DNA from: Candidatus Altarchaeota archaeon
GTDB taxonomy: Archaea > SpSt-1190
Direction: 5' to 3'
Length of the DNA stretch: 60,364 nt
Assembly (NCBI GenBank): GCA_018220935.1
Contig: JAAOXU010000030.1
Location: forward strand, 1-60,364
How positions within the stretch are numbered: the first letter of the stretch is position 1; every line of letters starts with the position of its first letter. The notes beneath the pieces were generated by a model. That model saw only the letters and a program-made list of their open reading frames with translations, did not search any database and had not been told where the DNA came from. Shown one piece after another: positions 1 to 20,600 of the stretch. The position numbers and the translations under genes are program-made.

Positions 1-3000
1 CTAACAGTTCAAGGAACTCTAACTCATAATCTTGAAAATCCAGACGGTGAAACGTATCTTAAGGGCGTAAACATCTCAATACGAGGAAATGTGACTAATG
101 ATTGTAATATTGGTATGAATTCAATTTATACTAACTTCACTCAAAAGAGTGATTTTACTAGTGAAGAACTTAAGTGTTCACCAATAAATGATGAAGGGGA
201 TGGGTATTACAATTGTACGTTTAATACCAGCAACATATCACCAAGGTGGTATGACTTAAGTTTTAATGCAAGTGAAATTTATTACCACGACAATAATAAA
301 ACACTAAACAATAAGTTCTTTGTTGAGACTGAGCCAAGTGTAGCAAACACAAAAGTCAACACAAGTTCTTATGATGGTGATGACGGAGTTATTGGTGGAT
401 ATTCAGAAATTTTCAATTATTCGGTTTTTGTTACTGATGTTGATGGAGACACATTAACGGCGTGGTTATGGCTTAGAAGTTGGAACCAAACTTCAGGAAA
501 TTGGACTAATTGGACTTTCGAGAATACTAAGTCTTGTGTTGATTGTAACAACACTTTACTTTACTCAGAAAAATTAAATTTCCTTTGCTCAGACCTAAAA
601 GATTGGCAGTTCTTATGGAATGTTACTGATGACCCTGATGATCCGTTACCAGGAGAAACAACTTACTTTGATGAAGATATTCCTAAAAATTTCACCATTG
701 AACAAGATGATGTACAAGTTAATTATTATGCCGGAGATGGTGGTACTATTTGGAGAAACGGAACAGATTCAAGAGTATTGAGTACCGAAATTTGGGATGT
801 TGATGATCAACGATACCTATCAACTGGAGAAGCAGATGGATTTTTCTGGATTACAGTTAATGGAACTGATTGGGATGGGGCACATGCAGTAGGAACAATC
901 CAACGTTTCTTTAATTACACTTACAACCCAGATTGTTCATACTTTACAGGTACACAAAAATGGGTTTCAGGAACAGTAAGTAATACCTGTTTTAAGGACG
1001 TTAATTCAAGTGAATTTACAGCAACACTACAAACATACCTACAAGGATCAATTGATACACCTGACGGGGAACCATACCAAAGAGGTCAACCAATTCCATT
1101 TAACATGTATGTTGAAGATGAATGTTCAGTTGGAGTTGAAAGTCTCACGCGTCAACTACATCTATACGTAGAAGGTAATCAATATGATATAACCTCAGGA
1201 ATAACTGACCCAAGTAATGGTACATACACTTACTCTTGGGACAGTGCACTAAAGACTCTCGGAAATTACAATGCAACATTTGAAGTTTCAAAAACAAATT
1301 ATGTCGCGCAAAATATAACAAAAATCTCAGCGTTTGATTTAGGTGAACCTCCCGAACTACAATTACAAAGTGTTGATAGATTGCTTGGTGGTTGGGGTGA
1401 GACTTGGAAATTTAGTGTTCAATGTAGAGACCGTGAAGGGGATACAGATCAAGTTCAATTATGGATTAAAAAGAATGCAACCGAAAATTGGGAAATGATT
1501 CAAGAACAAAATTGTACATCTGGTTCATATGTTGTTAAAGATTTCTTTGAAGTTTTCACATGTTCAGATATTACCCCAATAGGAGATGACGCACAGTGGA
1601 AGTTTAACGCATCCGATCAATGGGGCTTTACAGATGAGACCGCAATTGGTACTGTTGATATTGAAAAAGATGATGTTTCAATGTCACTGATTGCAGGACA
1701 TAACAATTTAATAAACCGAGAAAGTAATCCAACACTTTACTTATCTGTTAGAGCATATGACGATGATAAACTTGAATATTTACCAACGGATAGAAATGGA
1801 ACGTTCTATATTACAACTAATGGTACTGAATTTGATTCCGGAAACACAAGCGTTACTAATGCAACAGGTCACTTAGTTTACAACTTTAATCCATCTTGTT
1901 CATATGAGACAGGCCTACAAAATTGGAAAGGTGGAATTGAAAATGATGTATGTTACAAAGATTCATTTAGTCCAGATTATGACTTGAGTGTATATGGACA
2001 ATTAAAGAACGCCATTGAGATTCCCACATATGGTAGTATTTTCCAGACAACAAACCCTATAGATATAAGACTAAACGTGAGCACCGATTGTTCTGCAGAA
2101 GGCATAATAAACAGCACTAACGTGAATATAACACTAAATTCACCCCTTGATGATTTAGAGAGTTGCACCCCAGTTAATAATGAAGGGGATGGCTGGTATA
2201 ATTGTACATGGGATAGTTCATTTAGAGCACCAGGACTCTGGGACATCGGAACTAATTCAACTAAATCCTACTTTAATTTTAATTACACTAACTTAGTAAA
2301 TTGGTTTGAGTTACAAAATAAACCAACTAATTATAGTGATGTGAACGTTACACTTAATTCGTCAGGATGGGGTGCACCATTTAATTATTCGGTTAATGTC
2401 ACGGATGATGATACTGATGATGTGAATTGTACACTTTATGTTTCACTAAATGGTGGAAGCAGTTTTGAATCAAAGGGTCTCCAACTTATTACAAATGGAA
2501 CTGGAATTTGTTACTTTGACTTACAAAGCTTTACTTGTGCAGATATAGGAACAGACAACCAATATTACTTCCAATTAAATGATGGATATAATTCAGTTCA
2601 AACCCAAACAGAAGCAGGACCAACTATGACAAAAGACAGTCTTACGATAACACATCTTGATGGGAACGGTGGAACTGTTAATAGGACTATTACGAGTTTA
2701 TTGTTAAAAGTCAATGTCACTGATGATAACACTGGTAGTATTGCCCAAGACAATTTACCAGTTTACTTTAACATAACTAATAACGGATTAAATTATACAC
2801 AAGAAGATATTGATAACACAACTTTAGGTGTTTCTCAAATTACATTTAATCCTACTTGTTCATATGAAGTTGGAGTTCAAAAGTGGTTTACATACTTTGA
2901 AGAAGATTCTTGTTTCTTTGCAGCTAACACGAGTGAATTCAATTTGACAATATATGGTAAAATAACAAACACAATAATTTTACCAAATGGTACAGAACAT

Positions 3001-6000
3001 TATCAAGGAGAAGATAATGTAACCTTTAGAGCAAACTTTAGTGATCAATGTAATAATCTAATTGATCCTGAATATGTTAATTTTTCATATACGCATCAAG
3101 ATACAGCAAGTGAAGATTATTGTAGTCCAAGTGTGAATGAAAGCTTTGGATATTATAATTGTAGTATTGAAACTACTAATTTGAGTACAAGGTGGTATGA
3201 TACAGAAGTTTATGCAAATAAGACTCTACACACCCCAAACATAGAAACTGAAACTCAAGCCTTTTGGATTGAGACTAGACCTAATATAACACTCGTTTCA
3301 GTTGTTTCTGAACAAGGCGGTGGAATTGGAGGTTGGGGTGAATCTTGGACCTTTAAAGTTAATGTTACAGATTGGGATAAAGACGCAGTTAAGGTCTGGT
3401 TTTGGGATAGACCGGCTAGTGGAGGAGATTGGGAAATATTAAGTCCATTTGGTGTGACTAAAGCAGTTGGAATTGAGAGTCAAATTGTTACATTCATCTA
3501 CAATGGTTATACTTGTTCAGACTTCACAGGCGGTGCAAACAGAGAATGGTTTGTTAATGGTACAGATGATCCCTCTGAGCCAATAAGTGAACAAGACATT
3601 ACAAACACCAGTGTTAGTACGCATTCACTTGAAAGAAATGATGTTGAAATTTTACATAATCAAGGAAACGGTAGTTCATTAAACAGAAGTAATGTTACCA
3701 ATGGAGAAACAGTAACACTAAAAGTTCAGATAAGGGATACAGATAAAGATGCGTCAGTAAACACACAAGATACTAGTAAATTCTTAGTTACAACTGATGG
3801 CTTTAGTTTCACTCAAGACTTACAACTTGCAACAATTGAACCAGGTGGTTATGTAACAGATGATTTCCCATCAATAGCTGAATGTACCTATGGTATTAGT
3901 CTACAAAAGTGGAAAGTTGAATTTGGAGAAACCTGTTACAAAACAACACAAAGTCAAGAATGGAATGTAACACTAAAAACTGATCCAATTGAAGTTATAT
4001 TATACACACCCAAAGGAGACCCATATAGACAAGGTATTGATGATATTGAATTTTATGGTGGGGCATATGATGATTGTGGTGGTGTTACAAATGCAGATTT
4101 AACATTTGAAGCTATACAAAATGATAACACATATGTTTGTTCTGGAACACAAGGTGTTGGAAATGGTAATTACACCTGTAATATAACAAACACAGGGGCT
4201 TGGCTTCTAGGAAATTACAACGCCACAATGAATGCAAGTAAACAAGGTTACAACGACAGTGTTGTTTTACTAGTTGAAGATGGAATAAAACTCGCAACAC
4301 AGCCTTCCCTAGTAGGTTTCTTTGTATCTACTAGTGATGGTGGTAATTCATATGGTTGGGGTGAATATTGGGACTTCCAAGTCGACTTCTTTGATAGTGA
4401 TCAATTAGTCTATGATTATGAAGTTGCAAACATTACACTTTGGTACTTTAATGATTCACAATGGATTTTACTAAATAGTACAACGTGCAGTGCACCAACC
4501 TGTAGACTAACTGAAACACGTCACTTTTACAGAGACTTCACATGTAGTGATATTGGAAGTAATATTCCATTTACCCTAAATATTACAGACTATTGGAACT
4601 TTACAGAAACGTGGAATTTCAATCAAGATATTATTACAGATGACGTATTACTAACAGTAATTCAGTCACCTACATACGTTAGTAGAGAAAACCAAACAGT
4701 TCTGATACAAGTTAGAGGTACGGATCAAGATGCAGGTCATTTATTGGGTGCAAGTATTAACGGAAGTTTTGAAGTCACAACTAATGGTAGTGGAACTTGG
4801 AGTGTACCAATTTACAATCAAACTGATTCAGGTGGATACTTATCTTACAACTTTAACCCAGGATGTGGATATAATGTTGGTAATCAAGATTGGAGATCAC
4901 AAATTGAAACCGCGTGTTATTCAACAACAGCAATTGGTCCGGCATCTGGATTTATGGACGTTATTGGTCAATTAAAAAATAATATAACGTATCCCACAAA
5001 TGGAAGTAGCTATTATGTTACAGATTTAGTAAATTTCACATTTAATATTAGTGATGAATGTAATGAAAATTGGCAACCCATTAGTGACGCGTATCTAAAT
5101 ATTACATTTAATTCAACTAATGGTCTAAATGCGACTTTTGATCAAAATAATACGACTTATGTTGGTGAAGGTCTTTACAATTTCTCATGGATTACTGATT
5201 TTCACGAAGGTGGGTTATGGGACGTAAAACTAACGTCACAAAAAGAATATTACTACAGTAATCAAACAGACTTTACTGATTACATTTATCTAAATAATAC
5301 TCCCGCAGTTGCAGAAAACTTCAGCGTAACACCAACAACAGAAGGATGGGGAAGAACCTTCACATTCAGTGCAGACATAATGGACAGTGAACAAGATAAT
5401 ATAACTTGTAAACTTTTTGTTACGACTGACAGTGGATCAACTTGGATATACAAAGATGAACAAGTAATAACATGGGGTGTTGGAACTTGTGAATTAAATG
5501 TTACAGACTTTAATTGTGCAGACATAGGAACTGATAATTATTATAGATTTGAAATTGATGATGGCACTCAAGAAAATATATTTAATACAAGTTATACTCA
5601 AGGACCAAATATTACCGCAGATGATGTTTATTTAGAATATTTAGACGGGAATCAAACAGTAGTTAGTAGATATGGTATTAATGAAACACTTCTTTCATTT
5701 AGAGTATATGATCAAGACCAAAGTAATTTGACAATTTCTGGAATTCAAACAACCTATTGGGTAACACGAGACGGATCAACTTATGTCAGTCATACAGGAA
5801 CAACAACAAATTCAAGTGGACACTCTAATTATGATTTTGACCCAGTTTGTGATCCTTTATACTCACAAGGAATTCAAAACTGGAGAGCAGGAGTAACTGA
5901 CTCTTGTTATGTTGGGACAAACCTTACAGAAACATACCAACTAACCATTATGGGTAGTTTAACCAATGATCTTGATTATATCTATAAAATTGGAGTTCCA

Positions 6001-8160
6001 ACAGCACCCCCAGTTAATCTTACAAGGGACGAAGAAGATTTACAGGCAGATATTCACATAACTGATGACTGTAGCTTAGATGTTGATGCAGCCAATGTTA
6101 ATGTAACTTGGATTAGTGAATATAGTAACGAATACAATTGTACAGTTAGTGGTATTGGAAGTGGTGCTTATAGATGTGATATGCCAACAAATAACACAAG
6201 AGCAAGATGGTATGATATTTCAATGAATTCTTCAAAGCAACCATACTACTATGATAATTTAGCTTTTGTTCAAAGCAATGTATTATTTGTCCAAACAAGA
6301 CCGGTAGTAACTAATCTTACGTGTCTTAATTGTCCAGGTGGATGGGGTGAAGTATTTGAGTATAGTGTGACACTAACTGATGAAGATTTAGATAATGTAA
6401 CAGCAAAATTATTTGTAAAGAAACCTGGATCGATATTCTCCTTTGAACTCAACGTAACCAATGTTAGTTCACCAATCATAAATAAAACGGTAATACTAAG
6501 CATACCAGATTCAACATTCACGTGTCCAGATCACCTAGGTATTGGTGAATTTAAATTTGAAGTTCAAGACAATAGGGGTCTTGTGAGATCAAACCAAACT
6601 AACTACAGTGTTGAGCGAGATGATGTTAGATTTGAAATGTATAATGGTGATACTGAAATGGTCTGGAGAAATGGAACTGGATACGTATTTTTGAGTCTTG
6701 ACCTTTATGATGATGACCGAAATATATCACTACCATCTGGACTTGGTGGAAATGTATGGGTAACAGTTAATGAAAGTTATTGGGATGCTGGAAAAGGTAT
6801 TGCCACAAATAGTACAGGAAACTTCAATTATAATTTCATGCAAGAATTACCACCATCAGGACAACGCTGTGATTATTCACTAGGACCACAATGGTGGAGA
6901 GGTTGGATAAATGACACATGTTACAAAGATACCTATTCACAAAATTATACTACCACTATCATGTCTGAATTAATTCCACAAACAATAATCCCAGACGGAG
7001 AGGGTTATATTGTTGGAGATAAAATGTTGATTGCTGGGACGGTTGGGGATGATTGTCCTGCTTTAGTTGAAAACGTAACAGCTGAATACAAGCTAAAGAG
7101 AGGTAGTAACACGTATACTTGTAGTATTTCAAATAACTTTAATTGGACTGAAAATTCAGGTTGGTATAATTGTACGTGGGACAGTGCAAGTCGTGTTAAG
7201 GGTTGGTATGATATTACACTTAATGTTTCAAAGACTTACTATGCAAACAACGGATCAATTAAGACGTCTGCATTCTTCTTAGGTGAACCCCCTGTATTAG
7301 AGAACCCTCTAATTGATCATAGTTATGGTGGATGGGGTGAGCAATATGGATTCCAAGTAATCTTTAGCGACCCAGATTATCATGCAAACAATCTTAGTCT
7401 TTGGATAAGTTCAGATAATTCAACTTGGAACTTAAAGGATTCTAAGTCAGCTATAGGTGTTCAAGCAACAGTTCAGTTTATTGAAAGATTCACGTGTGGT
7501 GATATCTCAATATTCCCCAATGGAACAAGATATTGGAAGATAACTGCAGTTGATCCATTCAATTATAGTGACGAGACACCAGTGTTTGAAATTAATTTTA
7601 CAACAGACAATGTAACCGTTGTAGTTCAGTCATCAAGTAATGACACAGTTAGAAGGATGGGTGCAAATGACGCATTCTTAGAATTTTTAATTTATGATAC
7701 TGATTTAGACGTATATCCAAATGATACAAGTAGCTTAGTTTGGATTACTGAAAACTTTACTAATTACACCATACTAAAAACGTGTACATCAACCAATGGA
7801 TATTGTAATGTTACACACGACCCGGTTTGCGCATCTTCAATTGGTGATCAGCTCTGGATTGGTGCTACAAACGACTCGTGTTACCAAGTTCTCAATTCAA
7901 CCCCGGGAACGCTAGAAGTAATAGGACAATTATACGCACAGCCAGAAAGACCATCTGAGGGTCAAATAATTAATAGAAATACAACTGAACTCTTCAACAC
8001 CAGCGTTGTTGATGAATGTAGTGAATTAGTGAATGGGGCAACAGTTAATTGGTATGATGATTCAGATAACTCAATTGGAAACGGTTATGAAGTTAATTGG
8101 AGCATTCCAAATGGATTTGAACTAGGCGGTGAGACTATCACAACTAACACCAGTAAAACT
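1..8160 (+). repeat. Eight tandem protein repeats of about 330 residues (about 990 bp)
   Basis: The repeats are visible at protein level. A GWG-type motif (GGY in the first unit) recurs near 391, 1384, 2359, 3328, 4349, 5338, 6337 and 7324, a mean period of about 990 bp. Each unit contains in order: a D-[ED]-C segment after a GQL/GSI-type strand, a YNCT-type Cys, the GGWGE.W.F.V..D.D segment, an F.C.D segment, a [DN]DV segment ending in an Arg, and a C.Y..G.Q.W....D.CY segment. About six Cys per unit are conserved, which fits extracellular disulfides. DNA identity between units looks low, so the repeats are old or diverging rather than recent copies. Confidence 0.85.
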
Positions 8161-11100
8161 AGTTATGATCCAGGTACCAATTCAACTAATATTTACGTAT
8201 ACGGATGGGCAATAATAACAGATATACAGCCCCCAGACAGTACTCAAATTGAAGCAGGAACAACTGCACAAATAACTTGTGAAGTTAAAGATAAAAACAT
8301 AGGGAGTCCACTCCCCACATATAGTGTTGACTTTTACAAAAATGAAACATTCCAGGACACAAAAGCCACAGGTATTGATGGAATTGCAACTTGGCAATGG
8401 AACACCAATACAGAACCATTTGGATGGTACAATATTAGTTGTCTTATAGGTAATGAACCAAGTATGTTTTACAACTACAGCGGGGGACTTAATACTACGA
8501 TATTACAAGTAAGGCGTTTACTAAAATTCAGTTACGTTACACCAACACCATATCAATTCTACAGAAATGATAGTTTTACTCCGCATGAAACATATTTGGA
8601 AGCAAAAGTAACAGAAGCACAAACAGGTCCAAGTGAAGATTCAAACATAACGTTTTACAATCAAACTTACGAATTAATTGGATGGTGTATAACTAACCCA
8701 CAAGGTGAATGTAACGTAACATTTAATGCATCAGACACCACAATACCAGACATCTACACAGTATACGCAAATGCAACAAAATCAGGTGCAGAACCATCAG
8801 TAACTAATTCAACTACAATTAAAGTTCAAGCTAAGATGTCTGCAAATATTACAGATCCTGTAAATGACTCTGCCTGGACTAAAGGAAACGTCATAAACCT
8901 AATTGTAGTTGTTAAAGATGAAAATAATCAAAACATAACGTCCGCAGATGTTTTCTGGTACAATGAAAGTAATGAAGTTGCACAGGGTTTGTCAACTACA
9001 TTAAATCTTAATACTCAAGATACAGGATGGCGAAACTTAACAGTTGAAATTAGAAAGAACTGTGCAAACTCACCAAGTACTGAGTGTTATGATAGAGAAT
9101 ATGGAGAAACTATAATTAGAATTGATGGACTCTCCGGCGTCAGATGGCTTAGCCCAACAGCACAGCCAGTATCACCATGGACTCAAATAACAGTCCTTGA
9201 AGCTGAAAACTTCAGTTGTGAGGTTTATGACACTATAACTAGTCAAAAGATTTTCAATTATAGTACAGAAATGTGGTATCAGTTTGATGTAGGAGACTGG
9301 GTTAAACTTGGATCATTTTATTCAGGTCACAATGGTAATGTAACTCAAACATTCATACCCCAAGTTAAAGGTGACTTGACATTTAAATGTAATATAACAG
9401 ATGACATATCTAAACTTTATACTGTTGATATTGCTGAAGCAAGTGCAACTTTTGAGGTTATTGATGATGTTCCACCAACCATATATGACTATTATATCTA
9501 TCCAACTTCAGGATTAGAAGCATATCAAGATAACACTACAATTTACACGACCATATCTGATAATATCGGCGTATCAACTGCATGGGCCGCAATTGAATTA
9601 CCAAATACAACGTTTGTTACTAAGAGTTTCGTAAGATATCCGTATCCAAATACTTTCAAGTTTGTTGATTTAGAGAATAGTACAAATATAACACATGTTG
9701 AAAATATTAGTGAACCAGGTCGTGTATCATTCTTTAACCTCACGATTGAAAATAATGAAACCTTTGATGCGTACTTTAATGTTTCAGTAAATGGCATACT
9801 AGTTTTTGATAATGTTAGTTTAATTAATTCAACTAATACTACTATTGATTTAGTTGAAAATTATACCTTTAGTTCAGCCGGTGAATTTAATTTAAGTGTT
9901 ATGTTCTTTAATGCGAGCAGTGAGCCATTAAATTTAAGCCACGTCTCTTGGATAAATTACACAGTTCACTCAGACCGGTATAATGTTTCATATGTCCCAT
10001 TAATTGGAGGCACACATAATGTAGTAATATATGCTCAAGACTTACCTCCAGAAAACAACTTAGCAAGTCAAGCTGCAGGTAGTTTTAATGCAGGGGGTAT
10101 CACTAATGTCACAGTTAATCTAACACCAGCATATCAACCCGCATTTGGCATAACACAGCTTGACGACTTTACATACATTGTAACAGCAAATATAACCAAT
10201 TGGGGGCCAGTAACCGCAATAAATGTTAGTTTGAACATAACTGATAGTTCAATTGATTATATGAGTTATAATATTACAAATGCCAGTTGCGGAAATTTAG
10301 CAGCAAATAGTTCATGTGTACACTACGTCTTAACTACAGTAAAGGAGAAGACACCACCAGCCTTCATACAAATTAGCTATAATGTTAGTTGGGTTAATCC
10401 AGACAGAGGATTTAACACAACAATAGGTATTACTGAAGTTGAGGTTGCTGAAAATCCAATATTAAACACTAGTGAAATTGCTGTATTTGCTGAAGCCTCA
10501 CACCAGAAGATGACATATATCGGAAACATAACAGTTGAATCACAAGGAAATACACCAATTTTTGATATTTCAATATACACTGTTGGTGGGGATCTATTCA
10601 CAAAGTGTGCAGAATGTGATCTTACAATTGTACCAGACGTACAAGGATTAGTTAGTGCCGGAGATAGTTTCCGTGCTGATTTATGGCTTGATGTTCCATG
10701 GGGTCAAGATCCAGGAATATATCTAACTAATTTAAGAGTTAACACCAGTAATGCTGCGTATAAAGATGTATTACTAAATGTCACAGTTCCGTGGAATAAT
10801 TCATGGAATAGAGCACCATCTACATATGGTACTATACTCGCACTACTAAACACAAATGTAACCCTTGGAAATGTAACAGCAAACAATGTGGGTAACGTAA
10901 GACTTGATTTCATTAATTATGTTAGTGGAACAGGTGCACCAATGGTCAATATTACGCCAAGAATCTTTGGTTTACCTAAAATTAATTCAAAAGATATTAC
11001 AGTTAGTTATTCAGTTGAACCTGATTCAATTGAAGGTATATACCCAGTCGTAATAACTCTAAGACCAGAAGATCAAGCAGGAAACCAAGCAGATCCATTT

Positions 11101-14100
11101 GATAATATAGTTACATTTACACTTAACGTTACAGACTTACCCCCGCTAATTGAAGACATTGTAGTTGAACCACAAAACTTTGAAGTATCTTTTGATACAG
11201 TTAATATTAATGCTACAATAACAGATAACTTTGTAGTGGCTGAGGCTTGGATCAACTTAACACTTCCCAATGGAACTGATTACATTAAGTTTATGAATAA
11301 TGAAAGTAGTCACTATTTCACCACATATAACACAGACACAATAGGATTCTATAAATTGAAAATTTGTGCAAATGATACAAGATTCCTATCTGGTTGTACT
11401 GAGGTAATTAATCTAACTGCTAATGCTAACACTACAATTAAATTTGAACCAGAAAGTAGCTTAACGGTTACAAATGCTAGATGGTTAGATGACATTAACT
11501 ATACGTTTAATTATAGTTTAAGAAATTCAGGATACTCAAGAGCATTTAATGTTAGTGCAGATTACAGTACTTTTGAAGGGTGGGTAGTTTACCCAAGTGA
11601 ATTTAATACGTCTATCTTGCTAAAGCAAGAAACATATAATGATTCTATGTACATTGAAGTTCCGGCCGCAACTGTTGCTGGAAATTACACCTTTAACTTT
11701 TACGCTAATTGGACTAACTATGATAATTCAACAGGAGAAAATACAACTAACCTTACAATCGAAGTTTTAGAAAACACATTAATTGAAGCCACACCCAGTG
11801 AAATTAATTTAACTATTATCAATAAAGAGAAGAAACTTCAAATAATTCAAATATTGTCGGCAGGAAATGTTCCAGTACAAAACGTGAGTATAAGCTGTGT
11901 TAGTGGATTAATTTGTAATAATATGACAGTAAACATTACACCCCAACTAATAGGTGATATGCCACAAGGAACCCTTGCATTAGTTAATTTAACTATAGAA
12001 GTTCCTGAAGTGTTTGAAACTGATGTGTATTACAGTGATATATTTGTGAATGGAACTGAATCATCACAAGTAGTAAAACTTTGGGTTAGAGTACCCCTTA
12101 ATATGTCGTGGGATCATAACACAACTTCAATAAGTAAAGTTTTAGTTCAAGGAGAACAAGGGGACTTTGGAACTGTGGGAATTAGGAATTTGGGGAATGT
12201 TCTCGCAAAGATTAATTTGAATGTAACTGGTAATATTACAGATTCAATAATTGTTGATAAATTTTACTTTGAAATGCCAATTGATGGATCAGATCAAGTC
12301 AATATTAAGTATAATACATCTGAATCATACTTTAGACAAGATTTAGTAGGTGAGATAGTAACATATAACGATACCGCAAATATTACAGAACAACGAACTA
12401 ATTTATCTATGACAATTCACCCACTTTGGGTGACTACGTTAAACCCAACAGAAACAAATCCAAAAATAGGTGTCTTTAACGGAACTAATATTACAGCAAC
12501 AATTAGCGCAACTTATGGTTACTCCATCATTACTTCAGGGATTGCATTTAACGCATCGCTTAGACGAGGAAATACGTATTATGATCTTAATCAAACCTAT
12601 AAGTACAATGTTACAGATTTCGTATGGTACTTAAATTTCACAGCACCACAACTAAACTACAGTATAGGTTATGATTTAGTTATAACCGGAAATTATAGTT
12701 TATTTGACATAGCAAAAACAAATATTCAAGACAAAGCAATAGTCTACAATGATACAGTAAATCCAATCGTACTAATAAGTGCACCCGGAAAAACAGGCAT
12801 AAATGATACAGCAGTAATTTATCTTAATGCAACTGATGCAGGCGGTGTTAAAGACGCCACAATGACAATAACATTCCCAGATACCATATCAAAAATAACT
12901 ACGGCAATGACTTATCTTTACAAAGTTAACGACACGTATGTATTTAGACTCAACTTTAATGATACACAACAAGAGGGAGTGTATGGTGTTAGTGCTGAGG
13001 CGTGTGATTATTCAGGTAATTGTGGTATAGGAATAAGTCAATTCACAACTTTCCCATTCGCACAATGGCACGGTAGAGCACTTGATGTTGATAGATCAGA
13101 CACAGTACCAATAAATCTAACATTTAACTTATATGAAGAATTAACAGATAATTCACTTTTCTTTGTATATCCAAATGAAACGGGTTACTATAATGAAACA
13201 ATTGATGCGAGAAGATATGATATTGTAACAAACTATGAGAATGTTACTACAAAATTATATGGTGCAAGAGTATTTGGCGATATTGAGAATCCAATAGTAC
13301 ACGGAGTTATACCAGGGAGTATGATAGGTTTAGGAACTTATGTGGGACTTGACTTTGAATCTAACCTGACTTATGATACTGCAAGAATTACATTTGACTA
13401 TGCCGACTTTGCAGGTGTTTCTGCAAATAATTTAGGAATTTATGAGTGTGAGAATTGGATAAGATTCCAAGGATGTGGTGGTAATTGGACCAGAATGATT
13501 GGCACAGTTATTGATTTAGGTAAAGAACAAGTGTATGCAGTAGTTACAGCTTTTGAAGACGCATACATAATGTCTGAATATGTTTGTGGTAATCAAGTTT
13601 GTGAAACTGGATATGGTGAATCACTTGCAACTTGTCCACAAGACTGCCAAGTTAGTTCACCTTCACCAACTGAACCAGGACCAAGTGACGGAGGCGGTGG
13701 AGGTGGAGGCGGCGGAGGTGGTGGAGGTGGAGGCGGCGGTGCTACACCAACTGACGAATTAGCACCAATTCCAATTGAATTTAAGGCACCCGTAATTGAT
13801 GTTACAGTATATCCAGGTGAGAGTAAGGTATTTGGTATTGAGATTACTAATAACCAGATTAATTCAACTGAAGGTATAATTTATGCAGAAGGTCCAATTT
13901 GGTCCTTACTTGAATTCCAATTTGATGAGTTTACTGTTGAGAATAAATCAACTAGAACCATTCAAATTAGTGTTAAACCAACTAATAATGTAACACCAGG
14001 AGTTTACACAGGAGACATCGTAATAGAAATTGGTAGCCTAAAACACAGAATCCCTGCATCAATTGCAGTTGAAATACTCCAAGAGCCACTACTTGACGTT

Positions 14101-15777
14101 AATGTGAAGATGCTCACACCCACAGTTAGACCAGGAGAGGATCTGAAGTTTGAAGTAACTCTAATTAACATGGGTGGAACTGAAGAAGTTGAAGATATTG
14201 TAATTAATTATACTGTAAGGACTCTTGAAGGTGATGAGACTCTAATCACGATTGCTAGTGAAACAGTTGCAGTTGACAATATCAACAGATACATCAGAGA
14301 AGTTGCAATACCAGAAGATGCAGAAGAAGGTCGCTATGTGATTGAAGCGACTGCAAGATATTGGTATGGTAGAAAGTATGCACTTAGTACTGATAGTTTT
14401 GACATAACAATTGAACCAGCAGCAATAACTGCAATAAGAAAAATTTTCGGTTGGTGGGTAACTTGGGTATTAATGTTCATTTTAGCACCAGTTGCATACT
14501 TTGGTGGTCAGTGGGTAATTGATTATTATAGAAAGTGGAAGGCCGCAAAAGAGAGTAAACAAAGATATACATTACCAGTTGATATGGATGAACTACCAAA
14601 AGCAGGTGGTTCGGCAGTTAAAGTTGGTAAATTGGCTGGAACTGAACTTGATGCTTGGTTTGATTTAGATGATTTAATGACGCACGCAATTGTAGCTGGA
14701 GCTACAGGATCTGGAAAAACAGTAAGTGCAATGGTAATTGCTGAAGAAGCACTAAAGTCAGGTAAGTCCATGGTAGTATTTGACCCCACAGCACAATGGA
14801 GTGGTTTCTTAGCACCAAATAAAGATCAGAAAATGATTAAACACTTCCCAGAATTTGGTCTAACTGAAGAAGATTCTAAGTCCTTTAAAGGATTAATCTT
14901 TGAGATCACCGATCCAGAACAAATTATGAATATTGACTTTAAGCAATGGATTAGGCCAGGAGAAATCACAGTATTTACACTAAATAAGTTAACGACAAGT
15001 CAGTTTGATGCAACAGTAAGAAATATTATTGCAGTATTCTTCAAACAGGTTTGGGAAGAATCAAGTGAACTAAAGACTTTAATCGTATTTGACGAAGTCC
15101 ACAGACTCTTAGAAAAATATGGTGGTCTTGGAGGATATGTTGCACTTGAAAAGGCAGCAAGAGAATTCCGAAAATGGGGTCTTGGTTTAATGGTTATCTC
15201 TCAAGTTTTAAGCGATTTCAAAGAAGCTGTTAAAGGTAACGTATTAACTGAAGTACAAATGCATAGTAAAGGTACTGATATCGAAAGAGTCAGAAGTAAA
15301 TATGGTGATGAATACGCTGAAAGGCTAATCAGACAAGAAATTGGTGTTGGGTTCTTACAAAATCCAAGATATAACAGAGGTAAACCTTGGTTTATTAAGT
15401 TTAGACCTTTAATCCACAGCCCACATAAATTATTGGAAGAAGAGTTAGAGACATATAAGAGGTTAGGTGCAATAATCTGGGCAATTAGAGATAAAGTTAA
15501 CAAGATAAAGGAGAAAGGTAAAGACGCAGGCGATCTAGAAATGGAACTAAAATTAGCTGAAGATAAATTAAAGAGTGGTGCATTTAGAATGGCTGAGATT
15601 TATCTTGAAGGTCTAAGAAAGAAAGCTGGAATTACTGATGTTAATGCTGCAATTGGCGCTAAGAAAGGTAAGGGCGGCAAGAAAGGAAAAAAGGATAAAA
15701 AAGATAAAAAGGAAACACCAACAAAAGTAAAGACTAAAAATGAACCAGAAGAAAAAAAGGAAGTGGATAAGAAATGA
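1..15777 (+). CDS. Giant surface repeat protein fused to a cytoplasmic HerA/VirB4-like ATPase (5' partial)
   Basis: The frame is already open at base 1, in mid-repeat, so the N-terminus lies outside the window; 5258 residues are visible. Residues 1-2700 are eight tandem units of about 330 residues. Ig-like/CARDB-type modules follow to about residue 4500. Then come a Cys-rich CGNQVCE...CPQDC motif (13585-13647), a run of 17 glycines (13690-13740), two more beta-type domains and one hydrophobic span (14446-14526) followed by basic residues. The C-terminal 400 residues are a P-loop ATPase: Walker A GATGSGKT at 14698-14721, Walker B LIVFDE at 15079-15096, then a VISQ sensor-like motif. A Lys/Glu-rich tail ends the protein. 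Asn-X-Ser/Thr sequons are very dense outside and scarce inside. The inferred topology is exterior N-terminus and cytoplasmic ATPase. HerA/VirB4-class ATPases pump DNA or power secretion; the substrate here is unknown. The stop overlaps the next gene by 4 nt. Confidence 0.9.
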   Translation, partial: LTVQGTLTHNLENPDGETYLKGVNISIRGNVTNDCNIGMNSIYTNFTQKSDFTSEELKCSPINDEGDGYYNCTFNTSNISPRWYDLSFNASEIYYHDNNKTLNNKFFVETEPSVANTKVNTSSYDGDDGVIGGYSEIFNYSVFVTDVDGDTLTAWLWLRSWNQTSGNWTNWTFENTKSCVDCNNTLLYSEKLNFLCSDLKDWQFLWNVTDDPDDPLPGETTYFDEDIPKNFTIEQDDVQVNYYAGDGGTIWRNGTDSRVLSTEIWDVDDQRYLSTGEADGFFWITVNGTDWDGAHAVGTIQRFFNYTYNPDCSYFTGTQKWVSGTVSNTCFKDVNSSEFTATLQTYLQGSIDTPDGEPYQRGQPIPFNMYVEDECSVGVESLTRQLHLYVEGNQYDITSGITDPSNGTYTYSWDSALKTLGNYNATFEVSKTNYVAQNITKISAFDLGEPPELQLQSVDRLLGGWGETWKFSVQCRDREGDTDQVQLWIKKNATENWEMIQEQNCTSGSYVVKDFFEVFTCSDITPIGDDAQWKFNASDQWGFTDETAIGTVDIEKDDVSMSLIAGHNNLINRESNPTLYLSVRAYDDDKLEYLPTDRNGTFYITTNGTEFDSGNTSVTNATGHLVYNFNPSCSYETGLQNWKGGIENDVCYKDSFSPDYDLSVYGQLKNAIEIPTYGSIFQTTNPIDIRLNVSTDCSAEGIINSTNVNITLNSPLDDLESCTPVNNEGDGWYNCTWDSSFRAPGLWDIGTNSTKSYFNFNYTNLVNWFELQNKPTNYSDVNVTLNSSGWGAPFNYSVNVTDDDTDDVNCTLYVSLNGGSSFESKGLQLITNGTGICYFDLQSFTCADIGTDNQYYFQLNDGYNSVQTQTEAGPTMTKDSLTITHLDGNGGTVNRTITSLLLKVNVTDDNTGSIAQDNLPVYFNITNNGLNYTQEDIDNTTLGVSQITFNPTCSYEVGVQKWFTYFEEDSCFFAANTSEFNLTIYGKITNTIILPNGTEHYQGEDNVTFRANFSDQCNNLIDPEYVNFSYTHQDTASEDYCSPSVNESFGYYNCSIETTNLSTRWYDTEVYANKTLHTPNIETETQAFWIETRPNITLVSVVSEQGGGIGGWGESWTFKVNVTDWDKDAVKVWFWDRPASGGDWEILSPFGVTKAVGIESQIVTFIYNGYTCSDFTGGANREWFVNGTDDPSEPISEQDITNTSVSTHSLERNDVEILHNQGNGSSLNRSNVTNGETVTLKVQIRDTDKDASVNTQDTSKFLVTTDGFSFTQDLQLATIEPGGYVTDDFPSIAECTYGISLQKWKVEFGETCYKTTQSQEWNVTLKTDPIEVILYTPKGDPYRQGIDDIEFYGGAYDDCGGVTNADLTFEAIQNDNTYVCSGTQGVGNGNYTCNITNTGAWLLGNYNATMNASKQGYNDSVVLLVEDGIKLATQPSLVGFFVSTSDGGNSYGWGEYWDFQVDFFDSDQLVYDYEVANITLWYFNDSQWILLNSTTCSAPTCRLTETRHFYRDFTCSDIGSNIPFTLNITDYWNFTETWNFNQDIITDDVLLTVIQSPTYVSRENQTVLIQVRGTDQDAGHLLGASINGSFEVTTNGSGTWSVPIYNQTDSGGYLSYNFNPGCGYNVGNQDWRSQIETACYSTTAIGPASGFMDVIGQLKNNITYPTNGSSYYVTDLVNFTFNISDECNENWQPISDAYLNITFNSTNGLNATFDQNNTTYVGEGLYNFSWITDFHEGGLWDVKLTSQKEYYYSNQTDFTDYIYLNNTPAVAENFSVTPTTEGWGRTFTFSADIMDSEQDNITCKLFVTTDSGSTWIYKDEQVITWGVGTCELNVTDFNCADIGTDNYYRFEIDDGTQENIFNTSYTQGPNITADDVYLEYLDGNQTVVSRYGINETLLSFRVYDQDQSNLTISGIQTTYWVTRDGSTYVSHTGTTTNSSGHSNYDFDPVCDPLYSQGIQNWRAGVTDSCYVGTNLTETYQLTIMGSLTNDLDYIYKIGVPTAPPVNLTRDEEDLQADIHITDDCSLDVDAANVNVTWISEYSNEYNCTVSGIGSGAYRCDMPTNNTRARWYDISMNSSKQPYYYDNLAFVQSNVLFVQTRPVVTNLTCLNCPGGWGEVFEYSVTLTDEDLDNVTAKLFVKKPGSIFSFELNVTNVSSPIINKTVILSIPDSTFTCPDHLGIGEFKFEVQDNRGLVRSNQTNYSVERDDVRFEMYNGDTEMVWRNGTGYVFLSLDLYDDDRNISLPSGLGGNVWVTVNESYWDAGKGIATNSTGNFNYNFMQELPPSGQRCDYSLGPQWWRGWINDTCYKDTYSQNYTTTIMSELIPQTIIPDGEGYIVGDKMLIAGTVGDDCPALVENVTAEYKLKRGSNTYTCSISNNFNWTENSGWYNCTWDSASRVKGWYDITLNVSKTYYANNGSIKTSAFFLGEPPVLENPLIDHSYGGWGEQYGFQVIFSDPDYHANNLSLWISSDNSTWNLKDSKSAIGVQATVQFIERFTCGDISIFPNGTRYWKITAVDPFNYSDETPVFEINFTTDNVTVVVQSSSNDTVRRMGANDAFLEFLIYDTDLDVYPNDTSSLVWITENFTNYTILKTCTSTNGYCNVTHDPVCASSIGDQLWIGATNDSCYQVLNSTPGTLEVIGQLYAQPERPSEGQIINRNTTELFNTSVVDECSELVNGATVNWYDDSDNSIGNGYEVNWSIPNGFELGGETITTNTSKTSYDPGTNSTNIYVYGWAIITDIQPPDSTQIEAGTTAQITCEVKDKNIGSPLPTYSVDFYKNETFQDTKATGIDGIATWQWNTNTEPFGWYNISCLIGNEPSMFYNYSGGLNTTILQVRRLLKFSYVTPTPYQFYRNDSFTPHETYLEAKVTEAQTGPSEDSNITFYNQTYELIGWCITNPQGECNVTFNASDTTIPDIYTVYANATKSGAEPSVTNSTTIKVQAKMSANITDPVNDSAWTKGNVINLIVVVKDENNQNITSADVFWYNESNEVAQGLSTTLNLNTQDTGWRNLTVEIRKNCANSPSTECYDREYGETIIRIDGLSGVRWLSPTAQPVSPWTQITVLEAENFSCEVYDTITSQKIFNYSTEMWYQFDVGDWVKLGSFYSGHNGNVTQTFIPQVKGDLTFKCNITDDISKLYTVDIAEASATFEVIDDVPPTIYDYYIYPTSGLEAYQDNTTIYTTISDNIGVSTAWAAIELPNTTFVTKSFVRYPYPNTFKFVDLENSTNITHVENISEPGRVSFFNLTIENNETFDAYFNVSVNGILVFDNVSLINSTNTTIDLVENYTFSSAGEFNLSVMFFNASSEPLNLSHVSWINYTVHSDRYNVSYVPLIGGTHNVVIYAQDLPPENNLASQAAGSFNAGGITNVTVNLTPAYQPAFGITQLDDFTYIVTANITNWGPVTAINVSLNITDSSIDYMSYNITNASCGNLAANSSCVHYVLTTVKEKTPPAFIQISYNVSWVNPDRGFNTTIGITEVEVAENPILNTSEIAVFAEASHQKMTYIGNITVESQGNTPIFDISIYTVGGDLFTKCAECDLTIVPDVQGLVSAGDSFRADLWLDVPWGQDPGIYLTNLRVNTSNAAYKDVLLNVTVPWNNSWNRAPSTYGTILALLNTNVTLGNVTANNVGNVRLDFINYVSGTGAPMVNITPRIFGLPKINSKDITVSYSVEPDSIEGIYPVVITLRPEDQAGNQADPFDNIVTFTLNVTDLPPLIEDIVVEPQNFEVSFDTVNINATITDNFVVAEAWINLTLPNGTDYIKFMNNESSHYFTTYNTDTIGFYKLKICANDTRFLSGCTEVINLTANANTTIKFEPESSLTVTNARWLDDINYTFNYSLRNSGYSRAFNVSADYSTFEGWVVYPSEFNTSILLKQETYNDSMYIEVPAATVAGNYTFNFYANWTNYDNSTGENTTNLTIEVLENTLIEATPSEINLTIINKEKKLQIIQILSAGNVPVQNVSISCVSGLICNNMTVNITPQLIGDMPQGTLALVNLTIEVPEVFETDVYYSDIFVNGTESSQVVKLWVRVPLNMSWDHNTTSISKVLVQGEQGDFGTVGIRNLGNVLAKINLNVTGNITDSIIVDKFYFEMPIDGSDQVNIKYNTSESYFRQDLVGEIVTYNDTANITEQRTNLSMTIHPLWVTTLNPTETNPKIGVFNGTNITATISATYGYSIITSGIAFNASLRRGNTYYDLNQTYKYNVTDFVWYLNFTAPQLNYSIGYDLVITGNYSLFDIAKTNIQDKAIVYNDTVNPIVLISAPGKTGINDTAVIYLNATDAGGVKDATMTITFPDTISKITTAMTYLYKVNDTYVFRLNFNDTQQEGVYGVSAEACDYSGNCGIGISQFTTFPFAQWHGRALDVDRSDTVPINLTFNLYEELTDNSLFFVYPNETGYYNETIDARRYDIVTNYENVTTKLYGARVFGDIENPIVHGVIPGSMIGLGTYVGLDFESNLTYDTARITFDYADFAGVSANNLGIYECENWIRFQGCGGNWTRMIGTVIDLGKEQVYAVVTAFEDAYIMSEYVCGNQVCETGYGESLATCPQDCQVSSPSPTEPGPSDGGGGGGGGGGGGGGGGGATPTDELAPIPIEFKAPVIDVTVYPGESKVFGIEITNNQINSTEGIIYAEGPIWSLLEFQFDEFTVENKSTRTIQISVKPTNNVTPGVYTGDIVIEIGSLKHRIPASIAVEILQEPLLDVNVKMLTPTVRPGEDLKFEVTLINMGGTEEVEDIVINYTVRTLEGDETLITIASETVAVDNINRYIREVAIPEDAEEGRYVIEATARYWYGRKYALSTDSFDITIEPAAITAIRKIFGWWVTWVLMFILAPVAYFGGQWVIDYYRKWKAAKESKQRYTLPVDMDELPKAGGSAVKVGKLAGTELDAWFDLDDLMTHAIVAGATGSGKTVSAMVIAEEALKSGKSMVVFDPTAQWSGFLAPNKDQKMIKHFPEFGLTEEDSKSFKGLIFEITDPEQIMNIDFKQWIRPGEITVFTLNKLTTSQFDATVRNIIAVFFKQVWEESSELKTLIVFDEVHRLLEKYGGLGGYVALEKAAREFRKWGLGLMVISQVLSDFKEAVKGNVLTEVQMHSKGTDIERVRSKYGDEYAERLIRQEIGVGFLQNPRYNRGKPWFIKFRPLIHSPHKLLEEELETYKRLGAIIWAIRDKVNKIKEKGKDAGDLEMELKLAEDKLKSGAFRMAEIYLEGLRKKAGITDVNAAIGAKKGKGGKKGKKDKKDKKETPTKVKTKNEPEEKKEVDKK

Positions 15778-16475
15778 AGTGGTTAGTAATTGCAATGGTT
15801 TTAGTTAGTGGATTTGCACTTAACTATAGTTATGATGGTTTAATTTATTCAACACCGGGAAAATCTATAGTATTACCAATTCACATTCAAAGCCTAGATG
15901 AGGAAGGGTTGTATGAAATAAATTGTTTCTCAAAGGCAAAAGTGAATTGTCCTGGTAATTTTTTTGTTAGTGCTAACAAAGAACAAAGTTTTGATGTTTT
16001 AATCACCCCCGAATTAGGGAGTCAAGTAGTGAATATAAAAATTGGAAGTGATTTTTTAAAATTTGAAGTAATTGGTTCAACTCAAACAGAAGTATTTCTC
16101 ACACGGTTAAAAAATTATGATGATTCTTTTTTTAGACTCGAAAAAACATATGGTGAACACACTGCAATTGATGATGCTAAGTTATTGATTAGAGAAGGTT
16201 ACATTGCATATGGATTGAATGATTTTGATGCAATGGACGGTATAACTCGTAATTTAGGTAGTATACTTAGTAATTATTATGATACACTTGATCCAATTGA
16301 TTTATTTGAAGAAGAAACACCATCAAAATTAAATTTTTCAGTTATTCCGTTGTTGTTATTAGTGAGCTTTGTAGTAATTTTGTATATAAGGCCAAAGAAA
16401 GAGATTAAGAGGACTTATGTTGATGAACTCACATCTTTAGTTAAAAAGGAGGAATATAATATTGGCATCCGCTAA
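15774..16475 (+). CDS. Small secreted single-span membrane protein next to the giant ATPase
   Basis: This 233-aa protein has an N-terminal signal-like segment (MKWLVIAMVLVSGFAL), a 160-residue predicted external part with two Cys near residues 50-58, and a C-terminal hydrophobic span around residues 190-207 followed by a basic cytoplasmic tail. The first third looks beta-rich; the second resembles a short helical hairpin. Its ATG overlaps the giant gene's stop (ATGA), and its end overlaps the coiled-coil gene by 14 nt, so the three are almost certainly co-translated. I do not recognise the family. The context suggests an accessory subunit of the ATPase-bearing surface protein. Confidence 0.8.
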   Translation: MKWLVIAMVLVSGFALNYSYDGLIYSTPGKSIVLPIHIQSLDEEGLYEINCFSKAKVNCPGNFFVSANKEQSFDVLITPELGSQVVNIKIGSDFLKFEVIGSTQTEVFLTRLKNYDDSFFRLEKTYGEHTAIDDAKLLIREGYIAYGLNDFDAMDGITRNLGSILSNYYDTLDPIDLFEEETPSKLNFSVIPLLLLVSFVVILYIRPKKEIKRTYVDELTSLVKKEEYNIGIR

Positions 16476-17634
16476 AAAACCAAAAAAAACAGCAAAAAAG
16501 GCATCTAAGACTGTTAAGAAGGTTAAAGTAGAGAAAAAGACCCCAGAAGAGACAACAGAAGAAACTCAAGAAGAAGAGAGTCAAGAACAGACTATTGGGG
16601 ACATTGTTGAAGAAGAAGGGTTAGTAACTGAACCAGATCGAGAATCAATGCTCGGAAAAGACGCAGCGCCAGATATCTCAGAACTTTTAATGCGAATTGA
16701 CCGAATTGATGGTAAGCTCGACTTATTCAAAGGTATGCTTGATTCATTTGGTGAACGAATTTCAGATATGAATGAAAGATTAGGGGACACTAGACGAATG
16801 GTGTTTGACAGAGAAAAATGGGCAAGTAAATTAGAAACTGAATTTGAGAAAGTATCTAGTATTGTAAAAGAACTTGATCCCGAAAAAATAGTTTTAAAAT
16901 TTGAAAAATTCAAAACAGGTATTGATACTCAAGATGCAAGAGTAAGTAGACTAGATGAACTTCAAAACAATGCAAATGAAAGAATGAAATTAGTTGAAGA
17001 GAAATTAGTGAATATAAAAAGTCTTGATAATATTATGAAGGCTGCTGAACTTGTTGATAAAAAAATTAAGGAAATAGAAGATACTAAAAATTATTCAGAT
17101 AAACTAGCAGCAAAAGTTGAATCTATGTTTTTAGAAATTAATGATAAGGTGAGTTATCTAAAAGATAATGTGAGTAAACTTCAAAAAGTTGACTCATTAA
17201 CTAATGATGCTACAAAAGAAATTGAAAGTATTAAATTTCAAATTGATCAAGAACTAGTTAAAAGAAAAGATGCAGATGAATTAATTGATTCAGTAAAAGA
17301 TATTATTGTTGAGGAAATTGTCGGGATTAATCCTGCAGCATTTGACAGTTTGCGTCACAGAGTAACTTTAATGGAGAATAAAGATAAAAGTAGTAAGTCT
17401 CTTGAAAATGAAATGGGTAAATACTCAGGCTTAATGGATAAAGTTGAACGAGACTTTCAAATGGGTAGATTAAAAGACCAGAGTTATGGTGAAATAAAAA
17501 AGAGCACTGAAAAGAAAATTGCTGAGATTAAGTATGTGCTCGAATTACGTTCAAACAAACCAAATAAAGCACCTCAAAAACTCAAAGAAAAGTTAATTAG
17601 AACAGTCAAGGAAGACCAAAAAAGAAATAAGTAA
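16462..17634 (+). CDS. Cytoplasmic coiled-coil protein, third gene of the surface-ATPase operon
   Basis: This 390-aa protein has no signal peptide or membrane span. The first 50 residues are Lys-rich and then Glu/Thr-rich, like the tail of the giant ATPase. Residues 75-290 show long heptad stretches with several phase breaks (MNERLGD..., KLVNIKSL..., KVSYLKDNVSKL...). The last 70 residues carry an F-x-x-G-x-L...Y-x-E-I-K segment resembling the SHOCT motif, and a basic end. The start is TTG at 16462, supported by a strong Shine-Dalgarno GGAGG at 16448-16452, nine bases upstream, and by the overlap with the previous gene. It may be a scaffold or filament connecting to the cytoplasmic ATPase; this is inference from position only. 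Confidence 0.85.
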   Translation: MASAKKPKKTAKKASKTVKKVKVEKKTPEETTEETQEEESQEQTIGDIVEEEGLVTEPDRESMLGKDAAPDISELLMRIDRIDGKLDLFKGMLDSFGERISDMNERLGDTRRMVFDREKWASKLETEFEKVSSIVKELDPEKIVLKFEKFKTGIDTQDARVSRLDELQNNANERMKLVEEKLVNIKSLDNIMKAAELVDKKIKEIEDTKNYSDKLAAKVESMFLEINDKVSYLKDNVSKLQKVDSLTNDATKEIESIKFQIDQELVKRKDADELIDSVKDIIVEEIVGINPAAFDSLRHRVTLMENKDKSSKSLENEMGKYSGLMDKVERDFQMGRLKDQSYGEIKKSTEKKIAEIKYVLELRSNKPNKAPQKLKEKLIRTVKEDQKRNK

Positions 17635-17636
17635 AT

Positions 17637-20600
17637 TTATTTTATTAGTCCTTTTAATTCTTCAAATGTTTCTCTGGATATCATACCCTCTTCATACTGG
17701 TCTTTTAATGCGTCATAAACATCTGAATATTCATTTTCTTCTCGTGACCTAATAAGAGTATTTTTAATTTTAAGTAAGGATGTTCGTCTCTCTTTATCCT
17801 TAAAGACATTAAATTTCTTAAGAGCAATTACAGCCACAAGTCCAATTATTGCGATAAATATTAAGATAAGATACCACTTAGTTGGAATTTGTGGGAGCAA
17901 AATAGTTGGCAAAAAGTCAGGTTTTGCAATTTCTAATCTATATTTAATTTCTTCAATCACACTTTCTGCTTCAGATATCGTTTTTATAGCATCAACCACA
18001 CTGTCTTCGAGTAGGTAAGTATCAGCAACTTCTAGTAGTTCCCTCGATTTTCTAAGTAAGGATAATATTTTTGTAACGTCCCCACCTCTAGCAGCAACTT
18101 TCCCAGTCTGGTCTTCTAAATCAAGTAGTTCGCTCTGAAGTGTATTAATCCTCGCACGAAGTGCTTCTTCTTGAGTTTTAAATACAAGTATTTTATAGAA
18201 TTCTGAGACTTCAATTTCTTTAGCAATTATTCTTAGTTTAGTAACGTATGTCCTAGCTGATGCTGAATCGGGAATTGAGAATTTAACTACTAAGTAACCA
18301 TTTGAACCCGCACTCAAAAGATCAATATCACGTACTACTTCAAACCATTCTTTTTCAATATCTTCAAAGAAGACTGTGATAGCAGTTAAATCAATATTAC
18401 CTGTGTTTTTTAGTTCAATGGTGAGGTATCCTACTGAGCCTCGATTTAATATTAGTTGATCAGGGAAAAGATTAGTTACAGTAAGTTCAATAACTGCCGC
18501 TTGAACTGGTTCGAGTATTTCAAGTGGTTCTCCTTCAGTAGTTGCTGCAATTACATTAAATGTTCTTGAAACTTCAATTGGCGGACTAACTGTAGAATAA
18601 TTAAGTAGTACGTTTAGAGTATAGTTTCCTGGAAGTTGGTTAGAGAAAATATTAAGACTTCTATTAAGAGTTCTGTTACCTCCTGCGGCCACAAAAATAG
18701 CTTCCCCCTTAACTTCGTCATATTTTACGTTGTCTTTTTCAACCCAATAAGATACGAATACATCTTGACCAAAATCACCCATGTTCTCAAGTAGTATATC
18801 AAAATCTTGAGACGTACTGACTTCAACTTCAGGTTCAATATTAAGAATTACAACGTCAAACGGTCCCCCGTATGTGACCCTAAATGATTCTAACTTTTTA
18901 ATTTGTCTCCCCCCTTCTTCAAGAGTCAAAACTGCCAAATAATATCCAACAGGAGAATTAACTGGCATTGCAAATGAATAGGTGTAGAGTGTACTCGTGT
19001 TAGTTGCATCAAACTGACTAAACGATTCTGTTGAGAAGTAAATGTTTTGTGCAGGATCATACACAGTAAGGTTTATTTTTTCTGGAGGGGGGAAAGGCCT
19101 ATCCCCATATGTTAGCACATAAAAGTTCATAGTAGAATCAGGATACCAAACTAAACTTGTATCAAATTCAATATTGTAGTCTTCCCTTGCTTTAAATTGA
19201 TAGGTTGCATTTGCGTATACTGTTTTATTTGCAATCCCATCATAGTGAGTTCCATTCACAAATACAGTATAGTTCCCAATTGGTGCATCACTTGCGAGAC
19301 TAAAAGTAGGAATTGGCTCAACTTTTCCAGGTGTACTTAATTCTTCTAAATATCGCAAATCCCCAAATGGATCGTGTATAAAAATAGAAAGATTAGACGA
19401 AATTAAAGTGCCTGCATAATCAGTAGAGTTTACGTATAATGATACAGTCTCACCTAAAAAGTAAGTTCCGTAAATGGTTTCAATTGGAATTTCAAGAAGG
19501 GGATATATGTATTTTGTAATATTTACCCTAGAAGTCAAACCAAGATTATCTTGAATTTCAATCTGAAAAGTGTAGTTTCCAAATACATCACTAATTCCCC
19601 CTACAGTTGGATAATCAGTTGAATAATAGTAGGTTACATTAAATTGGCTAATTAGGTTTAAGTTAATAAATTCAGTTCCATTATTGGGTTTAAAGACCAC
19701 AATTCTTGAGAAGTTTAAACCCTGAGCCGATTTATCAGTAACGTTTACGTATATTGTAAAAGTTTCTAGTTCTTGAGAAAGATTAACTGAAAAACTCGTA
19801 TTTATTTCTGCTAGTTCTCTTGGGATCATACTTAAGTTAAAATAATCCCAAGAAGGTGTACCACCCTCAACACTAATGTTATATGTAGCATTATAGTAAT
19901 CTCTAGCAACCCCAGTTATATTCCAAAGAAAATCAATTAAGTAGGTGGTTTGTTTTGGGATTGTGAAGTTAGTTGTATTTGGAAATGTATAGTTTGATGT
20001 TTCGGGTGATATTGAAAAATTCAAAGGAACGTTACCAGTATTATTAAAGAAAACACCACACATAGTTCCTAAATCAAATGCAACAGGAGTTGTACAATTT
20101 TGTGGAGAGTGTTCCCACGTTTTGGAAGTTGGAATTGTAACATTTAGAAAAACTTCATCATACCCACCACCAGAACTAGTAACGTTATTAGTACCTAAAT
20201 AATATCCAGGGATATAACCTGCAGGAATTGTAACATTAACATCAATATCAGTAATATTACCCGCAGCAAGTGAACTTATGACGGGATTAAATACAAAGGT
20301 AAAATCGGGTAAATTCAAAACGTTAGTTCCCATACTAGTTACTTGATCATTTCCTGTGTTGATTAGTGTGTAAAAACCAATTACAGTTGAAGTACCATGA
20401 GTTGCATTGTTTGCAATAAAACTTTGATTCACAATAAATTCTTGATGTGAACTTACGTTTATTGATACATCAGTAACATTATACGACACACCAACACCAG
20501 GATTAATCCAACTGACATTTGCACGAATTATATACGTCCCAGGGGATGAACCCATCAAACCAACATTAAAGGCACTCTCACAATATTCATTTATTTGAAG

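What the first reader, a model, noticed from the sequence alone, without database searches (positions are those of the whole stretch)
1..15777. Giant repeat-containing surface protein fused in one chain to a HerA/VirB4-type ATPase
Seen: one uninterrupted frame links more than 4800 sequon-rich residues, one membrane span and a P-loop ATPase with intact Walker A (14698-14721) and Walker B (15079-15096). Known: such ATPases normally form cytoplasmic hexamers moving DNA or protein. Inference: ring assembly would cluster six giant exterior arms, possibly a cell-contact or conjugation-like device.
Basis: partly seen in the sequence, partly recalled or inferred. Interest (0 to 1): 0.85.

Follow-up and report, generated by a model that had tools for sequence, protein, structure and literature searches.

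The report
Giant symbiont surface protein with motor
The window holds one very long archaeal gene whose product is a giant sugar-decorated outer arm joined through the membrane to an ATP-driven motor; it belongs to the SPEARE-type proteins already described in host-dependent nanohaloarchaea, and the new part is that the motor nearly always comes with a dedicated partner gene and occurs across many archaeal families.

Summary
One stop-free frame (window 1-15777, 5258 codons, open at the contig's left end) joins about 4813 exterior residues (253 N-glycosylation sequons, against 81±7 in shuffles; none in the cytosolic part), one membrane span and a HerA-FtsK superfamily ATPase with Walker A, Walker B and the trans arginine finger intact. 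The fusion is no assembly artefact: it recurs in complete single-contig genomes. It is not new in kind. Three genomes hit by the search encode giant proteins of exactly the published lengths of SPEARE-type proteins (8880, 9409, 8553 and 3315 aa), and the window motor is about 50-53% identical to three of these nanohaloarchaeal giants. New here: the motor family is in 59 of 394 archaeal genomes, with open frames from about 680 to 12,145 codons. In 40 of 44 readable loci it is followed by a conserved cytosolic coiled-coil gene (window 16462-17634), sometimes with further single-pass surface proteins. The published VirB4/type IV secretion assignment fails here: no VirB4 N-terminal domain and no TrbL/VirB6 channel in 12 genomes. 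Best mechanism: a host-contact arm on a membrane motor ring that moves a polymer across the symbiont membrane; substrate and direction unknown.

The parts
1..15777 (+). Giant surface-protein/ATPase fusion gene (SPEARE-type), 5' end cut off by the contig edge
   Evidence: orthologous giant ORFs in other genomes
4..8217 (+). 8 full and 1 partial tandem units of about 320-341 residues, each a string of Ig-like/macroglobulin-like beta-sandwiches
   Evidence: AlphaFold2 on 8 window copies pLDDT 87; Foldseek to complement C5/alpha-2-macroglobulin domain strings and a tandem adhesin repeat (6xi3)
8218..13689 (+). Further Ig-like/NEW3-like exterior region
   Evidence: weak NEW3 (NPCBM_assoc) hit 0.02; aligned along most of its length with the G055 giant
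13690..13740 (+). 17-residue polyglycine hinge between arm and membrane-proximal module
13798..14439 (+). Membrane-proximal exterior module (probably two Ig-like domains, by length), found also in short-armed members
14440..14508 (+). Single transmembrane helix
   Evidence: hydropathy; confident helix in model
14608..15429 (+). HerA/FtsK-superfamily ATPase core: Walker A 14698-14721, VVFDPTAQW 14773-14799, Walker B 15079-15096, arginine-finger motif REFRKWG 15160-15180, sensor SQ 15199-15204
15424..15624 (+). Conserved C-terminal alpha-hairpin (also in one D1-type companion, L059, E=9e-9)
15774..16475 (+). D1: small type I membrane protein (signal peptide, exterior domain, one TM), start codon overlapping the giant gene's stop; found in 4 loci
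16462..17634 (+). D2: cytosolic coiled-coil partner (no TM), conserved downstream of the ATPase in 40 of 44 loci; 56 genomes have both (59 have the ATPase, 60 have D2)
17637..23297 (-). U: 1886-aa type I membrane protein (signal peptide, NEW3, MG2-like, one TM, short tail with a weak SHOCT-like match); homologs next to D2 in other loci, 9 loci in all

Best explanation
This is a SPEARE-type giant host-contact protein of a small-genome, probably host-dependent archaeon: a glycosylated Ig-like arm of at least 4800 residues, one transmembrane helix, and a cytosolic HerA/FtsK-superfamily motor with a C-terminal helical hairpin. Shown here: the fusion, the intact catalytic residues including the trans arginine finger, the conserved membrane-proximal module, and the near-obligatory downstream coiled-coil partner D2, with D1/U-type single-pass surface proteins in some lineages. 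Inferred: subunits (giant ones alone, or mixed with short-armed paralogs) form a ring under the membrane, D2 docks on its cytosolic face, the arms hold the partner cell, and ATP hydrolysis drives a polymer (DNA by family precedent, protein not excluded) through the membrane at the contact site. Membership in the SPEARE-type group, defined by the cytosolic module and topology, is near certain (about 0.97). The translocation mechanism is about 0.5. Import of host DNA as a nucleotide source is slightly preferred over export because the closest curated model is the DNA-import ATPase CedD and nanohaloarchaea lack de novo nucleotide synthesis.
For: Exact-length identification of BNXNv_0298 (8880 aa, 26,643 bp), SVXNc_0300 (9409 aa) and SG9 SPEARE1 (8553 aa) and SPEARE3 (3315 aa) among the hits, against lengths printed in PMC10266531 and PMC6642349. 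Window motor about 50-53% identical to those of the BNXNv, SVXNc and SG9 giants. Catalytic residues conserved in 52/52, with the Walker B Glu in 51/52, mapped on HerA K154/D176/E356/R381. CedD is the only curated model hit by 26 of 26 members. D2 downstream in 40/44 loci, co-occurrence P about 3e-59. Sequons only outside; STT3 present. Signal peptides on relatives whose starts are visible. Literature: SPEARE peptides detected by proteomics; 9-11 nm bridges and a thin filament between SVXNc and its host; little nucleotide synthesis in nanohaloarchaea.
Against: No protein with a recognised translocation channel is conserved at the locus; one TM per subunit must make the conduit or an unknown partner does. 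TrbL/VirB6 is absent in 12 genomes. No substrate-specific feature was found. The N-terminus is missing, so signal peptide and tip of the arm are unseen. Ring formation is inferred, not shown; the ATPase model was poor without an alignment (pLDDT 44). Proteomics in PMC6642349 found exterior and cytosolic parts in different size fractions, so the arm may be cut off the motor in the cell.
Confidence: 0.55

Rival explanations
1. Type IV secretion 'straw': the giant proteins are part of a VirB4/TraG-type secretion system that injects effectors into the host (the published reading of PMC10266531).
For: ATPase superfamily and topology; tandem second ATPase in nanohaloarchaea; bridges between cells and host methylation change in the literature.
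Against: The VirB4 N-terminal domain PF03135, said there to be in BNXNv_0297/SVXNc_0299, was not detected in those genomes (positive control Caulobacter rang) nor in these proteins at E<=5; their N-terminal part has a signal peptide and a TM before the ATPase. No TrbL/VirB6.
Confidence: 0.2
2. Force-generating or remodelling anchor: the ATPase does not translocate a polymer but pulls, clusters or remodels the arms, D2 and U proteins (tension on the contact, or arm assembly or release).
For: Single TM, no channel, cytosolic coiled-coil partner without TM, single-pass partners with short tails.
Against: Superfamily members of known function (HerA, CedB/CedD, FtsK, VirB4) are polymer translocases; the catalytic set known from HerA is intact.
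Confidence: 0.2
3. Chimeric assembly or accidental read-through joining an S-layer-like gene to a helicase gene.
For: The gene lies at a contig edge of a fragmented genome (37 contigs).
Against: The same join in three genomes matched by exact ORF length to published organisms and in many families, including single-contig genomes; homology along most of the chain with an 11,262-codon ORF of another family.
Confidence: 0.01

Closest known systems
SPEARE / giant membrane-anchored proteins of Nanohaloarchaeota (PMC6642349, PMC10266531)
   Same: Giant exterior arm with Ig-like domains, one TM near the C-terminus, homologous cytosolic ATPase (about 50-53% identical to the giants of BNXNv, SVXNc and SG9), C-terminal coiled-coil hairpin
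   Different: Other lineage; arm sequence mostly different; no short-armed ATPase behind it but D1 and U genes; no protease or laminin-G domain in the part seen
CedD/CedB, DNA-import ATPases of the crenarchaeal Ced system (PMC11868833)
   Same: TM plus HerA-like ATPase; best curated profile for the window member, and the only one hit by all 26 members
   Different: 47.7 bits against a cut-off of 600; no CedD N-terminal domain match; no giant exterior arm in CedD
HerA helicase (Pfam DUF87; PDB 4d2i)
   Same: Catalytic Lys, Asp, Glu, trans Arg and sensor Gln
   Different: No HAS-barrel domain found; membrane-anchored; no NurA partner seen at the locus
VirB4/TraG type IV secretion ATPases
   Same: Superfamily
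   Different: No PF03135 domain, no TrbL/VirB6 channel in 12 genomes

Membership tests
SPEARE-type giant proteins (defined by topology and cytosolic module) | Conserved cytosolic ATPase module | tested here: met
   Published BNXNv, SVXNc and SG9 proteins are in the same profile family and tree
SPEARE-type giant proteins (defined by topology and cytosolic module) | Most of the chain exterior, TM near the C-terminus | tested here: met
   Hydropathy and sequon distribution
SPEARE-type giant proteins (defined by topology and cytosolic module) | N-terminal signal sequence | not testable with these tools
   5' end lies beyond the contig; present in relatives
SPEARE in the literal sense of Hamm 2019 | Serine protease, laminin-G and restriction-endonuclease domains | tested here: inconclusive
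   None found in residues 1-5258, but the N-terminus is missing, and PMC10266531 rejects the protease and endonuclease assignments
HerA | DUF87 P-loop core with trans arginine finger | tested here: met
HerA | N-terminal HAS-barrel and curated equivalog score | tested here: not met
   No HAS-barrel hit in Pfam at E<=1; HerA equivalog 41 bits against 800
VirB4 / type IV secretion system | VirB4 N-terminal domain PF03135 | tested here: not met
   0 of 12 genomes, control positive
VirB4 / type IV secretion system | TrbL/VirB6 membrane channel PF04610 | tested here: not met
   0 of 12 genomes, control positive; a very divergent CedA-like channel is not excluded
CedD | Curated CedD score (600 bits) including its N-terminal domain | tested here: not met
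   45.6-47.7 bits for the window protein

The most novel reading that the evidence does not exclude
The giant ATPase, the coiled-coil partner D2 and the single-pass surface proteins U/D1 form a distinct archaeal cell-contact translocation machine, unrelated to type IV secretion in its channel and accessory parts, spread over dozens of families of mostly small-genome archaea, in which the arm is a fast-changing host-specific part and the motor a constant one.
Probability: 0.35. Interest if true: 0.87.

Novelty: new member of a known kind. Interest (0 to 1): 0.58.

Why it matters
How DPANN and other tiny archaea take what they need from their hosts is an open question. A conserved motor joined to a host-facing arm, with a partner gene that can be expressed and tested, gives that question a concrete handle. 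The result also questions a published assignment (VirB4/type IV secretion) on which later work builds.

Tried and rejected
In-frame stops reported inside some relatives (TGA in G055/G095, TAA in G027/G068) looked like recoding, but the profile search over the same motors finds none, so they lie in alignment tails beyond the gene ends. The single genome-contig hit (L003, a Tenericutes MAG) is a VirB4-like ATPase next to a TraG-like gene of a bacterial conjugative element (27 bits to the family profile). Viral contigs hold no relative. The fold of the ATPase from one sequence was too poor to use (pLDDT 44). Distances in the ATPase and D2 families correlate weakly (Spearman 0.13), so tree similarity is no evidence here. 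The missing N-terminal part was not found on another contig. FlaC-like and other coiled-coil Pfam hits of D2 are scattered and weak and were not used. The organism could not be named; kinship shows only that it is an archaeon whose class also holds a 3.8 Mb genome, so 'DPANN' remains likely rather than shown.

Full report
Observation. The frame is open at its 5' end because the contig begins at window base 1. The exterior has 253 sequons in 4813 residues, three times the shuffled expectation, and the cytosolic 420 residues have none; an oligosaccharyltransferase gene is present.

Anatomy. Residues 2-2739 are 8 full units and one partial of about 320-341 residues. A model built only from the eight full window copies is confident (pLDDT 87) and consists of beta-sandwich domains resembling complement C5/alpha-2-macroglobulin domain strings and a tandem adhesin repeat (6xi3) (global TM-scores are low, probably because domain angles differ). 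Then come more Ig-like domains, a 17-residue polyglycine hinge, a membrane-proximal module that is also present in short-armed relatives, the TM helix, the ATPase and a conserved alpha-hairpin. The exterior aligns over about 2690 columns at 34% with the 11,262-codon ORF of G055, from another family, so the window protein may continue for thousands of residues beyond the contig edge (inference).

The motor. Pfam DUF87 (1.1e-10) and a profile search against solved structures (HerA 4d2i, 6e-15) place it in the HerA-FtsK superfamily. HerA residues K154, D176, E356 and R381, of which R381 acts on the neighbouring subunit (PMC4351679), map to residues conserved in 52 of 52 family members, with one exception for the Glu. 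No HAS-barrel, VirB4 or CedD N-terminal domain was found. By curated profile it is nearest to CedD.

Relation to known proteins. The family search hits genomes whose giant ORFs have exactly the published lengths of BNXNv_0298 (8880 aa), SVXNc_0300 (9409 aa) and SG9 SPEARE1 (8553 aa) and SPEARE3 (3315 aa). The motor part of the window protein is about 50-53% identical to the motors of the BNXNv, SVXNc and SG9 giants. The fusion is therefore real and already known in nanohaloarchaea (PMC6642349, PMC10266531). Hamm et al. 2019 had also noted sequences similar to the conserved cytosolic region in Woesearchaeota, Aenigmarchaeota, Micrarchaeota and Altiarchaeales.

What is added. The motor family is in 59 of 394 archaeal genomes with ORFs up to 12,145 codons. 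A coiled-coil protein without TM (D2, window 16462-17634) is in 60 of 394, 56 of them shared (P about 3e-59), and lies downstream on the same strand in 40 of 44 readable loci, in more than half within 100 bases. I found no mention of it in the papers read; in SVXNc it would be gene 0298 by counting from 0300 (inference). D1 (4 loci) and U (9 loci) are type I membrane proteins next to it, and one D1-type protein carries the motor's C-terminal hairpin. Nanohaloarchaea carry a second, short-armed motor behind the giant; several f15 genomes have short-armed motors of about 680 aa, some preceded by a separate Ig-like protein gene. The motor is thus the constant part and the arm the variable part.

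Correction. PMC10266531 says the second ATPase contains the VirB4 domain PF03135. It was not detected in those genomes with a positive control, nor in those proteins at E<=5; TrbL/VirB6 is also absent. The type IV secretion reading rests on superfamily membership only.

Mechanism. The most economical reading is an arm that holds the partner cell and a ring motor beneath it, with D2 on the cytosolic face, moving a polymer through the membrane at the contact. The ring, the conduit and the substrate are inferences. DNA import is favoured slightly by the nearness to CedD and by the lack of nucleotide synthesis in nanohaloarchaea; effector export and a purely mechanical role remain open.

Noticed in passing
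window 17637-23297 (-): Protein U, 1886 aa, another surface protein of the type I kind with NEW3 and MG2-like domains; full-length relatives (about 28-41% identical) lie beside D2 in other families.
   Followed up: partly
L072, L073, L076 (genomes G208, G280, G226), L071 (G297): Short-armed motors of about 680 aa; in three of the four a separate 640-1007 aa protein gene (Ig-like by Pfam in L072) lies just upstream (the fourth ends at the contig edge); looks like a split form of the same system.
   Followed up: partly
L072, L073, L075, L076, L078, L079: A KaiC-family ATPase gene (Pfam on the L072 copy 7e-44; the others share its BLAST cluster) lies beside or within a gene or two of the motor gene, which recalls ArlH next to archaellum genes.
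   Followed up: no
L037, L041, L053, L054 (nanohaloarchaea): A 108-115 aa protein with a zinc-ribbon-like Cys pattern and one C-terminal hydrophobic segment follows D2 in each.
   Followed up: no
G000:C32 about 7300-9200 (L005): A second HerA/DUF87-like ATPase of about 630 aa in the same genome, not of the motor family (24 bits).
   Followed up: partly
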